A stretch of 64,000 bases of DNA from a virus. The notes beneath the pieces were generated by a model. It made no database searches, was not told where the DNA came from, and worked only from the letters and a program-made list of their open reading frames with translations. Made by a program: the position numbers and the translations under genes. The stretch lies in IMG/VR virus record IMGVR_UViG_3300009093_000035, positions 184,580 to 248,579 of that record; one strand, 5' to 3'. The number at the start of each line of letters is the position of its first letter. The first letter of the stretch is position 1. Positions 10,300 to 14,008 of the stretch are shown piece by piece.

Positions 10300-10363
10300 G
10301 GCCGACAAGTAGCGCCGAGAGGGGGTTACCGTGCAAAGGTGTACTCCCGGCAAGTATTCGGCC
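10300..10363 (-). ncRNA. Y-RNA-like RNA, minimal form (Y-f)
   Basis: 64 bases. Ends pair GGCCGA/TCGGCC; the 5' side continues GAATACTTG and GGAGTACA; the 3' side carries CTACTTGTC. An inner GCCGGGAG/CTCTCGGC helix closes a loop, with no tRNA-like module. Head and tail motifs match the five other Y-like RNAs at 12-14 kb. It starts three bases after the 3' end of tRNA-Gly(CCC). Confidence 0.6.
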
Positions 10364-10365
10364 AG

Positions 10366-10437
10366 AGCGGGTGGCGGGGATCGAACCCGCGACGTCCTGG
10401 ATGGGAACCAAGCGCTCTACCGCTGAGCCACACCCGC
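10366..10437 (-). tRNA. tRNA-Gly(CCC)
   Basis: Acceptor GCGGGTG/CACCCGC, anticodon loop TTCCCAT. Confidence 0.92.
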
Positions 10438-10523
10438 TTGTATTAGATCGAAGTTACGGAAGTTACCAGACCTTATCGAACCTCATGGTAACTCTCGGCT
10501 ACATGGACGGAACCAGAAACCAG

Positions 10524-10594
10524 AGCGGGCAGCGAGAATCGAACTCGCGTCTTCGGCTTGGAAGGCCGAGGCCAAGCCACTTGACCATGCCCGC
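10524..10594 (-). tRNA. tRNA-Gly(TCC)
   Basis: Acceptor GCGGGCA/TGCCCGC, anticodon loop CTTCCAA. Confidence 0.92.
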
Positions 10595-10606
10595 ATACGA
10601 ACCGGA

Positions 10607-11012
10607 TGGACTCGTCCGGAATTGAACCGGAGTCCACGAAGTCTACTACGATCGAGTACCACGCGCGTCTTCAACTCTTACGCCTGTCTTTCTAACGAGG
10701 AAGGCGCGAGGCTTGACAACCTCTCTTTCGGAACTCCCCGCGAAGTCTGCTCGGTTCCCCGCCTCGACTTCGATCGTCCCTCAGATCGCCTTTCGGCTCC
10801 CGCTGAGGTACAGCCGGGATTCCCCTAGCTCGATTACGCCAACGAGGAGAGTGCTAGGGACTCTCCTCGCCGACGGATCAGGCCGCCTGAGCGAGCTGAT
10901 CGTAGCTGCTGTCGTTCGCAGTTACTGTTGGTTGGCTTGATAACCCGGCCTGCCTACCACCCGGAGCGCGCACTCTCTCGTTTCGAACCCCATGTCGAAA
11001 CCTGTCGAGCCC
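10607..11012 (-). ncRNA. ssrA: tmRNA (transfer-messenger RNA)
   Basis: A complete one-piece tmRNA of about 406 bases. The 5' end GGGCTCG pairs with the 3' CGAGTCC, with a G3-U70 pair that marks alanyl-tRNA synthetase substrates. The start continues ACAGGTTTCGACATGGGG, like bacterial tmRNA. Near the 3' end is a T-arm TCCGG-TTCAATT-CCGGA. The tag ORF at 10878-10919 reads ANDSSYDQLAQAA then TGA, with TAACT just before the GCG resume codon. No CCA is encoded. tmRNA with SmpB rescues stalled ribosomes and tags the product for proteolysis; no smpB gene is seen here, so host SmpB would be needed. Confidence 0.93.
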
Positions 11013-11028
11013 GAAGACACTAGACCAG

Positions 11029-11101
11029 AGCCATCGGCGGGAGTTGAACCCGCGACCTCTCGCATACCAAGCGAGCGCTCTTCCAACTGAGCTACGAAGG
11101 C
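11029..11101 (-). tRNA. tRNA-Thr(GGT)
   Basis: Acceptor GCCTTCG/CGATGGC with one T-T mismatch, anticodon loop TTGGTAT, T-loop TTCAACT. Confidence 0.87.
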
Positions 11102-11106
11102 AAAAG

Positions 11107-11179
11107 AGCCGGCAGGGGCGCTCGAATCCCCCATCTCCCGCTTACGAAACGGGCGCATCGCCATCTATGCTTTACCGGC
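11107..11179 (-). tRNA. tRNA-Thr(CGT)
   Basis: Acceptor GCCGGTA/TGCCGGC, anticodon loop TTCGTAA, T-loop TTCGAGC with one T-stem mismatch. Confidence 0.87.
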
Positions 11180-11276
11180 AAGTTCCCAAGGTGTCCCGAG
11201 AGGACCACTCTCGTTCTTCCGAGGGCGCTTGGACGTTTTTCAAGGGTTGCTGGTTAGGCTCCTCTCACCGTCCTAG
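11180..11276. other. 97-base gap with hairpins
   Basis: GAGAGGA/TCCTCTC and GTCC/GGAC pairings can form on the minus strand. No T-arm, Y-RNA motif or ORF was recognised. Confidence 0.3.
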
Positions 11277-11348
11277 TGGATCCTACAGGGATTGAACCTG
11301 CGGCCTCTCGGGTGCAAACCGAGCGCTCTCCCGCTGAGCTAAGGACCC
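11277..11348 (-). tRNA. tRNA-Ala(TGC)
   Basis: Acceptor GGGTCCT/AGGATCC with the G3-U70 pair typical of alanine, anticodon loop TTTGCAC. Confidence 0.92.
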
Positions 11349-11352
11349 AAAG

Positions 11353-11420
11353 TGGACCGAGCGGATTCGAACCGCTTCCTTCCGTGTTCCACGGACGCTC
11401 TTCCTTTTGAGCTACGATCC
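11353..11420 (-). tRNA. tRNA-like gene, anticodon unclear
   Basis: Good D-arm and T-arm (GCGG-TTCGAAT-CCGC) and a six-pair acceptor GGATCG/CGGTCC. The anticodon arm is TCCGT-GGAAC-ACGGA, a five-base loop instead of seven, so no anticodon can be read with confidence. Confidence 0.55.
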
Positions 11421-11478
11421 TCTGTCTCGCCCCGGAAGCGAAACAGTTCGTCAATCGTCCGCGCGAACGACCAACTAG

Positions 11479-11551
11479 TGGACAAGAGGGGGATCGAACC
11501 CCTGACCTACGCCATGCCATGGCGTCGCTCTCCCAGCTGAGCTACTCGCCC
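11479..11551 (-). tRNA. tRNA-Ala(GGC)
   Basis: Acceptor GGGCGAG/CTTGTCC with G3-U70, anticodon loop ATGGCAT. Confidence 0.9.
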
Positions 11552-11757
11552 AAAACGACCCTCGGTAATACAGGCCGCCAACGAAGGAACAAGGCTACTC
11601 TCGTCCGACTCCCGAAGGAATCGTTCTCGTACGTGTCTCCGACCCGGGGCTCCTAGAAGCGCGGAACCGGAACCGACGCGAGATGATCCTCACCGACAAG
11701 GATCGACAGGTACTGCACGGTCTGCTTGCGCCTACCGTTTCCCTCCTTGAGTTTGGA
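11552..11757. other. Gap of about 200 bases, no firm gene
   Basis: A minus-strand reading frame ending at 11653 (LKEGNGRRKQTVQYLSILVG ...) has coding-like composition, but it has no convincing start and runs back into the next tRNA. No tRNA or Y-like RNA was seen. Confidence 0.3.
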
Positions 11758-11816
11758 GCCGGACCCGCCTAGGGTTTCTCGCCACCACAGCGTCCTAGGT
11801 CGGGTTGGTGTCCGGC
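11758..11816. ncRNA. Strong nested hairpin, function unknown
   Basis: GCCGGAC/GTCCGGC encloses a second helix CCTAGG/CCTAGG. It lies four bases from tRNA-Met in the array. It could be a processing or termination structure. Confidence 0.4.
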
Positions 11817-11820
11817 GTGA

Positions 11821-12977: not shown

Positions 12978-13019
12978 CCTCGATTTATGGCTTCGAGGTA
13001 CCTTTGCGCGCGAAGGAAG

Positions 13020-13094
13020 CGTCCCGTGGGGGATTTGAACCCGCCGTCGCCAGATTGAGAGTCTAGCATCCTAGGCCAACTAGAAGAACGGGAC
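13020..13094 (-). tRNA. tRNA-Glu(CTC)
   Basis: Acceptor GTCCCGT/ACGGGAC, anticodon loop CTCTCAA, T-loop TTCAAAT. Confidence 0.88.
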
Positions 13095-13099
13095 ATAGA

Positions 13100-13175
13100 G
13101 GCGAGACAAGAGAGACCGAGACGAGGGGCTTTCGCCCCACATTACCCAAAATGTAGTCCCGATCGAATTCTCACC
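13100..13175 (-). ncRNA. Y-RNA-like RNA, short form (Y-c)
   Basis: 76 bases with ends GGTGAGA/TCTCGCC, 5' motif GAATTC then GGGACTACA, and 3' motif CTCTTGTC. The tRNA-like module is replaced by ACATT/AATGT and a GGGGC-GAAA-GCCCC hairpin. The 5' end is two bases from tRNA-Ala(CGC). Confidence 0.65.
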
Positions 13176-13176
13176 A

Positions 13177-13249
13177 TGGACAGGAGGGGGATTGAACCCC
13201 TGACCTCTGCATTGCGAACGCAGCGCTCTCCCAGCTGAGCTACCCGCCC
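13177..13249 (-). tRNA. tRNA-Ala(CGC)
   Basis: Acceptor GGGCGGG/CCTGTCC with G3-U70, anticodon loop TTCGCAA. Confidence 0.9.
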
Positions 13250-13390
13250 AAACGAAAACCAGGTTCTCGAATCGGACTCGGGTAGGTCGATTCCCTTTCG
13301 GGAGGTGGCCTACCCTATCCCTAGCTCCTCGGGCCTGGCGCTACCGAGAAGATCCGAGCCAGCGAGGACCGAGGTCCCCGCGAAGATAGC
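13250..13390. other. 141-base gap with a strong hairpin
   Basis: On the minus strand GGGTAGG/CCTACCC encloses TCCC-GAAA-GGGA, and GGACC/GGTCC lies beside it. It lacks Y-RNA head and tail motifs. Unassigned. Confidence 0.35.
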
Positions 13391-13514
13391 CGTGCGACAA
13401 GAGTGACAGCGACGTTTTCTAGGCCCGAGCCTCGCTCCCTTTCGGGAACGACCAGGATTCGAACCTGGCTCGATTGTTGTTCATACAATGTAGTCCCCAT
13501 CGAGTATTCGCACG
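13391..13514 (-). ncRNA. Y-RNA-like RNA (Y-d)
   Basis: 124 bases with ends CGTGCGA/TCGCACG, 5' motif GAATACTCG then GGGGACTACA, and 3' motif CTCTTGTC. It carries a hairpin ATTGT-ATGAACA-ACAAT that mimics a Phe anticodon arm, a T-arm CCAGG-TTCGAAT-CCTGG, and CGTTCCC-GAAA-GGGAGCG as a capped acceptor. The D-like arm is reduced to AGGC-TCGG-GCCT. The 5' end lies three bases from tRNA-Pro(TGG). Confidence 0.7.
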
Positions 13515-13516
13515 AG

Positions 13517-13589
13517 TCGGGATGACCGGATTCGAACCGACGTCTCCTGCGCCCAAGGCAGGTGCTAAACCAGGCTCAGCTACATCCCG
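13517..13589 (-). tRNA. tRNA-Pro(TGG)
   Basis: Acceptor CGGGATG/CATCCCG, anticodon loop CTTGGGC, T-loop TTCGAAT. Confidence 0.9.
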
Positions 13590-13600
13590 AACAGAAACCA

Positions 13601-13676
13601 TGCAGCGAACTGGAGTTGAACCAGTGCCTCCCGGGTTTCAACCGAGCGCTCTACCTATGGGCTGAGCTATCGCTGC
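13601..13676 (-). tRNA. tRNA-Phe(GAA)
   Basis: Acceptor GCAGCGA/TCGCTGC, anticodon loop TTGAAAC. Confidence 0.9.
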
Positions 13677-13679
13677 GTA

Positions 13680-13752
13680 TGCTACGGGTCGGAATTGAAC
13701 CGACGACACCCCGCTCTTCAGGCGAGTGCTCTACCAACTGAGCTACCGTAGC
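13680..13752 (-). tRNA. tRNA-Phe(GAA), second copy
   Basis: Acceptor GCTACGG/CCGTAGC, anticodon loop CTGAAGA; sequence differs from the first Phe gene. Confidence 0.88.
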
Positions 13753-13758
13753 AAGACA

Positions 13759-13832
13759 CGCCCCCGAAGAGAATCGAACTCTCCTCGACCCTGCTTGACA
13801 AGCAGGCGTCTTCACCAGAGGACTACGAGGGC
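13759..13832 (-). tRNA. tRNA-Asp(GTC)
   Basis: Acceptor GCCCTCG/CGGGGGC, anticodon loop TTGTCAA, discriminator G. Confidence 0.92.
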
Positions 13833-13849
13833 AGGAACCAGGAAATTTA

Positions 13850-13939
13850 AGGCGACAAAGATCCCGAAGACACAGAGCGAGCCTTTCGGCCCTCTCTTCT
13901 GGTTTTGGTAGAAGAATGTAGTCTTCAGAGCATTCGCCC
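13850..13939 (-). ncRNA. Y-RNA-like RNA, short form (Y-e)
   Basis: About 90 bases with end pairing GGCGA/TCGCC (plus a G-T pair), 5' motif GAATGCTC then AAGACTACA, and 3' motif TCTTTGTC. Inner hairpins TCTTCT/AGAAGA and GGGCC-GAAA-GGCTC; no T-arm. The 5' end is two bases from tRNA-Trp. Confidence 0.62.
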
Positions 13940-13940
13940 A

Positions 13941-14008
13941 CGGGCTGTTAGGGACTCGAACCCAGCGCGGTCGGTTTTGGAGGCCAACCTGTGCCCTGCA
14001 CCCAGCCC
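13941..14008 (-). tRNA. tRNA-Trp(CCA)
   Basis: Acceptor GGGCTG/CAGCCC, anticodon loop CTCCAAA. Only 68 bases long: the D-arm is GTGC-AGG-GCAC with a tiny loop and the T-stem is weak. Confidence 0.72.

What the first reader, a model, noticed from the sequence alone, without database searches (positions are those of the whole stretch)
10300..13941. Every Y-like RNA starts 1-3 bases after a tRNA 3' end
Seen: Y-f follows tRNA-Gly(CCC), Y-a tRNA-Arg(CCT), Y-b tRNA-Arg(TCG), Y-c tRNA-Ala(CGC), Y-d tRNA-Pro(TGG), Y-e tRNA-Trp, with gaps of 1-3 bases on the minus strand. Inference: the Y RNA 5' end is generated by tRNA 3'-end cleavage of a common precursor, so no separate promoters are needed and Y and tRNA levels are linked.
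Basis: partly seen in the sequence, partly recalled or inferred. Interest (0 to 1): 0.72.

Follow-up and report, generated by a model that had tools for sequence, protein, structure and literature searches.

The report
Phage Y RNAs abutting tRNA 3' ends
A giant phage carries six small Y RNAs, partners of its own Ro60 RNA-binding protein, each placed directly against the end of a transfer RNA, and the same placement recurs in many related phages, which suggests the tRNA-processing machinery cuts the Y RNAs free instead of each needing its own gene switch.

Summary
Five of the six upstream tRNAs are called by ARAGORN and Rfam; the "tRNA-Trp" before Y-e is only tRNA-like. Among 75 loci from related Ro60 phages, a motif scan found 85 distinct Y RNAs. 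About 32 start at a tRNA 3' end. Where CCA is encoded (17), the Y helix starts within 1 nt of the CCA end every time; otherwise 0-3 nt after the discriminator in nearly all. Many also end 2-5 nt before the next tRNA. Other Ys in these phages lie in Ro60-adjacent clusters without tRNAs, one with a perfect promoter. Y RNAs near bacterial Ro60 genes are almost never tRNA-linked. Release by tRNA processing is the best explanation, but no RNA ends were measured. Linkage is not universal, and linked levels are only inferred. Y RNAs in phages are known, and tRNA-processed small RNAs have precedents in plants, an archaeon and a herpesvirus. I found no description of the combination, but the key Y RNA paper was not readable here.

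The parts
10300..10363 (-). Y-f: short Y RNA without tRNA-like domain, between tRNA-Gly(CCC) and tRNA-Cys
   Evidence: motif scan; fold z -2.9; syntenic Gly(CCC)-Y-Cys in L003
12239..12372 (-). Y-a: YrlA-type Y RNA with permuted tRNA-like domain, between tRNA-Arg(CCT) and tRNA-His
   Evidence: RF02553 39.9 bits; Arg(CCT)-Y-His cassette aligned in four phages
12770..12904 (-). Y-b: YrlA-type Y RNA after tRNA-Arg(TCG)
   Evidence: RF02553 51.3 bits; fold z -2.3
13100..13175 (-). Y-c: short Y RNA between tRNA-Ala(CGC) and tRNA-Glu
   Evidence: fold z -4.8
13390..13515 (-). Y-d: Y RNA with tRNA-like T-arm and acceptor mimic after tRNA-Pro(TGG)
   Evidence: fold z -3.5
13850..13939 (-). Y-e: short Y RNA after a tRNA-Trp-like sequence, before tRNA-Asp
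   Evidence: fold z -1.8
10365..10437 (-). tRNA-Gly(CCC), discriminator at 10366
12371..12446 (-). tRNA-Arg(CCT), discriminator at 12373; the ARAGORN end overlaps the Y-a helix by 2 nt
12905..12977 (-). tRNA-Arg(TCG), discriminator at 12905
13176..13250 (-). tRNA-Ala(CGC), discriminator at 13177
13516..13589 (-). tRNA-Pro(TGG), discriminator at 13517
13941..14008 (-). tRNA-Trp(CCA)-like sequence, degenerate; not called by ARAGORN or Rfam
   Evidence: read by eye
4394..6028 (-). Ro60/Rsr ortholog (TROVE + vWA), inside the tRNA array; likely GTG start at 6028
   Evidence: Pfam vWA_Ro60 2.9e-21, TROVE 2e-7; PDB 2nvo Rsr 1.2e-18; NCBIfam Rsr 7.5e-23, below its cut-off
16647..17855 (+). tRNA nucleotidyltransferase-like protein (probable CCA-adding enzyme); no CCA found encoded in the window tRNAs checked
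   Evidence: CCA check
10607..11012 (-). tmRNA in the same array

Best explanation
The six elements are phage-encoded Y RNAs, partners of the phage Ro60 encoded in the same array. They are transcribed as part of polycistronic tRNA precursors. The cut that finishes the upstream tRNA 3' end (RNase Z or an equivalent host nuclease; no RNase Z was found in the phage record) also makes the Y RNA 5' end, so no Y promoter is needed. Where the next tRNA follows within a few nucleotides, RNase P cutting its 5' end would leave a Y RNA with a short 3' tail. Ro60 then binds the closing helix. Shown: RNA fold, exact junctions, recurrence in other phages, Ro60 gene. Inferred: co-transcription, the nucleases, free mature Y RNAs, linked levels, function in structured-RNA handling.
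For: Fold: in 80 Ys the inner helix scores 17.1 against 9.9 (sd 0.26) when 3' halves are re-dealt. Junctions: 17 of 17 linked Ys after an encoded CCA start at -1, 0 or +1 of the CCA end; 13 of 15 without CCA start 0-3 nt after the discriminator (one of those 15, L042, was later dropped as spurious and window Y-e added). 3' side: of 18 linked Ys with a next tRNA within 30 nt, 14 have it at 2-5 nt. Loci with 5 or more tRNAs: 29 linked, 16 not; with fewer: 3 and 33 (Fisher p 2e-7; loci are related, so indicative). The Arg(CCT)-Y-His cassette is kept in four phages. No promoter-like site in 9500-15600 and terminators at chance. Similar placement in Mx1 and, read by eye, in actinophages Sixama, Blueeyedbeauty, Myrna and Breeniome. 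Contrast: 66 Y cores near bacterial Ro60 genes, about 3 within 90 nt after a tRNA.
Against: No transcriptome or end mapping. Not all Ys are tRNA-linked: L003:1864 follows another Y, L022:19178 has about 50 nt between tRNA-Trp and Y, and Ro60-adjacent clusters lack tRNAs. RNase Z is often hindered by an encoded CCA (my own knowledge), so the CCA-encoding phages may use another nuclease. The promoter contrast is modest on average (linked 5.59 vs shuffle 6.11; unlinked 7.38 vs 6.89), the scan assumes sigma-70 sites, and the host is unknown. Y starts were defined by base pairing, not measured.
Confidence: 0.78

Rival explanations
1. Each Y RNA has its own promoter, lying within the upstream tRNA gene or of a phage-specific type; adjacency reflects compact packing only.
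For: Some unlinked phage Ys do have promoters: L082/L083 carry TTGACA-18-TATAAT ending 6 nt before the Y. The host and any phage sigma factor are unknown.
Against: Promoter scores upstream of linked Ys are below shuffled upstream sequence; no promoter-like site in the array; packing alone does not explain a constant near-zero 5' gap alongside variable 3' gaps.
Confidence: 0.12
2. The Y element acts in cis as a tRNA trailer: Ro60 (possibly with PNPase) binds it on the precursor to guide tRNA 3' maturation, and the Y is not a free RNA.
For: Direct contact with tRNA 3' ends; Rsr works with exoribonucleases in Deinococcus (reviewed in PMC4726728).
Against: Most tRNAs of the array have no Y trailer; Y-a and Y-b keep a tRNA-like effector domain; some phage Ys have no tRNA beside them.
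Confidence: 0.1

Closest known systems
Bacterial and phage YrlA Y RNAs near Ro60 (Chen et al. 2014, not readable here; cited in PMC12282133, PMC8394870)
   Same: Closing helix, permuted tRNA-like domain in Y-a and Y-b (partly in Y-d), Ro60 gene nearby; Y RNAs in mycobacteriophages already reported
   Different: Placed directly at tRNA 3' ends, six copies, below the Rfam YrlA gathering score; three copies lack the tRNA-like domain
Dicistronic tRNA-C/D sRNA precursors of Nanoarchaeum equitans (PMC3491384) and plant tRNA-snoRNA genes (Kruszka 2003, cited there)
   Same: A small RNA directly downstream of a tRNA; the author proposes that RNase Z cleavage makes its 5' end
   Different: Different RNA class, cellular genomes, no Ro60; here many copies in a phage tRNA array
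MHV68 TMERs, tRNA-like plus miRNA hairpins (PMC7773990)
   Same: Viral RNAs in which the host tRNase Z releases a hairpin downstream of a tRNA-like element
   Different: RNA polymerase III transcripts of a herpesvirus; miRNA precursors, not Y RNAs

Membership tests
YrlA Y RNA (RF02553) | Closing helix formed by the 5' and 3' ends | tested here: met
   6-8 bp in all six; folds (the stretch folded for Y-a stopped short of its 3' arm)
YrlA Y RNA (RF02553) | Permuted tRNA-like domain (T-arm, acceptor mimic, D-arm) | tested here: inconclusive
   Present in Y-a and Y-b, partly in Y-d by eye; absent in Y-c, Y-e, Y-f
YrlA Y RNA (RF02553) | Reaches the Rfam gathering score of 69 bits | tested here: not met
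   51.3 and 39.9 bits for the two matches
Y RNA (functional class) | Encoded with a Ro60 ortholog | tested here: met
   Ro60 at 4394-6028 in the same array and strand
Y RNA (functional class) | Bound by Ro60 | not testable with these tools
   needs co-purification
tRNA-processed small RNA | Small RNA begins at the mature tRNA 3' end | tested here: met
   0-2 nt here; -1 to +1 of CCA in 17 Ys of relatives; sequence only
tRNA-processed small RNA | 5' end made by the tRNA 3' nuclease | not testable with these tools
   needs 5'-end mapping and RNase Z depletion

The most novel reading that the evidence does not exclude
Phages with tRNA arrays make Y RNAs as tRNA-like cassettes freed at both ends by tRNA-processing enzymes (upstream tRNA 3' cut, downstream RNase P cut), so Y output is tied to tRNA output; the same phage RNA family elsewhere uses its own promoters.
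Probability: 0.5. Interest if true: 0.68.

Novelty: new variant of a known kind. Interest (0 to 1): 0.58.

Why it matters
It would be a promoter-free route to Y RNAs, tie the Ro60 system of phages to their tRNA arrays, and give an easily tested case of tRNA punctuation releasing other small RNAs in bacteria-infecting viruses. It also supplies a sequence motif (GAAUGC..UACA..CUUGUC with a closing helix) that finds phage Y RNAs scoring below the Rfam cut-off.

Tried and rejected
The 694-aa vWA protein at 54562-56646 was first suspected as Ro60; it is not supported as such. Low-scoring RF02553 matches over adjacent tRNA pairs (10049-10168, 13700-13812) were rejected: the junction of two tRNAs imitates the permuted domain. 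RF02553 over 32 bacterial genomes at E 1e-9 gave one match and was too strict to use, so a pattern for the tRNA-like core was used instead; that pattern misses short Ys. Two apparent linked cases (L042, L069) are doubtful; L042 was dropped. RNase Z and RtcB families were not found in G000, G001 or Mx1; the virus records may be incomplete. Structure prediction and a covariance model were not run. Chen 2014 and the 2020 Ro60 review were not held.

Full report
WHAT IS THERE. The window is bases 184580-248579 of a 248,579-bp virus record. A minus-strand array from about 3860 to 14970 holds 44 ARAGORN tRNAs and a tmRNA (one more tRNA lies at 39758). Six RNAs share a closing helix of 6-8 bp, the strand GA-AU, an inner helix ending before UACA, and CUUGU before the 3' arm. 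Y-a and Y-b carry a permuted tRNA-like domain (T-arm, capped acceptor, D-arm), as YrlA does; Y-d carries part of it; Y-c, Y-e and Y-f are short. Rfam YrlA matches Y-b and Y-a below its gathering score.

RO60. The ORF at 4394-6160 minus is a Ro60/Rsr ortholog. Alignment with relatives places the likely start at the GTG at 6028. In L002 and L003 it likewise lies between tRNA-Gly(GCC) and tRNA-Thr.

THE JUNCTIONS. The first paired base of each Y lies 0, 0, 1, 1, 1 and 2 nt after the upstream discriminator base. No window tRNA checked encodes CCA, and the window has a probable CCA-adding enzyme at 16647-17855, a setting in which cleavage after the discriminator is expected. The Trp-like sequence before Y-e is weak.

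RELATIVES. Ro60 searches gave 71 related virus loci, 80 of the actinophage type and 80 bacterial or archaeal loci. In 75 loci of the window's type the motif scan made 100 hits against 2.6 per strand in shuffles, 85 distinct. The inner helix, not used in selection, scores 17.1 against 9.9 with re-dealt halves. Thirty-two were counted as linked to a tRNA 3' end; dropping L042 and adding window Y-e leaves 32. With encoded CCA the start is at -1 (5), 0 (11) or +1 (1). Two further Ys (L060:21266, L104:21015) follow CCA without a recognised tRNA. Of 18 linked Ys with a next tRNA within 30 nt, 14 have it at 2-5 nt; window values are 5, 11, 13 and 16 for Y-c, Y-a, Y-f and Y-e. The Arg(CCT)-Y-His cassette aligns in four phages.

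TWO MODES. Linkage goes with tRNA-rich loci (29 linked, 16 not) and is rare elsewhere (3 and 33). Unlinked Ys often lie in clusters near Ro60; L082/L083 have a perfect sigma-70 promoter 6 nt upstream. Y RNAs near bacterial Ro60 genes are rarely beside tRNAs. Actinophage examples read by eye also sit about 3-5 nt after tRNAs, while Breeniome has a further Ro60-adjacent group without tRNAs and Vibrio phage phiKT1024 shows no linkage.

INTERPRETATION. The likeliest mechanism is tRNA punctuation: tRNA 3' cleavage makes the Y 5' end and, where the next tRNA is close, RNase P makes the 3' end. The precedents are the tRNA-sRNA precursors of N. equitans and the tRNA-snoRNA genes of plants and the MHV68 TMERs. 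In bacteria YrlA tethers Rsr to PNPase (PMC8394870), so the phage particle may handle structured RNA, but nothing here tests function. Everything about transcripts and enzymes is inference from sequence.

LIMITS. Y starts are defined by pairing. Loci are phylogenetically related, so test statistics are indicative. Window slacks in the placement test were entered by hand. The motif scan favours the window's Y type. Prior description of tRNA-linked phage Y RNAs cannot be excluded because the main paper was not held.

Noticed in passing
window 6904-6988, 7192-7276, 7384-7469 (-): Three tRNA-Ser-like sequences (anticodons GCT, CGA, GGA by eye) with T-arms lacking the usual TTC loop; missed by ARAGORN.
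   Followed up: no
window 12450-12590 and 12596-12745 (-): Two tRNA-Leu-like RNAs of about 140-150 nt with unexplained extra internal hairpins; no Rfam match.
   Followed up: partly
L004:3489-3552: Mx1 has a Y-like variant between tRNA-Pro(GGG) and tRNA-Ile with UACA but without the CUUGUC 3' motif.
   Followed up: no
window 10049-10168, 13700-13812: Adjacent tRNA pairs score as YrlA because a tRNA-tRNA junction imitates the permuted tRNA domain; a possible origin of the domain.
   Followed up: no
window tRNA trailers, e.g. after 10523, 12062, 13601, 14891: Many tRNAs are followed by a TGGTTTC/TGGTTC trailer.
   Followed up: no
window 30856-32919: A 687-aa GroEL-like protein with an N-terminal extension of about 180 residues.
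   Followed up: no
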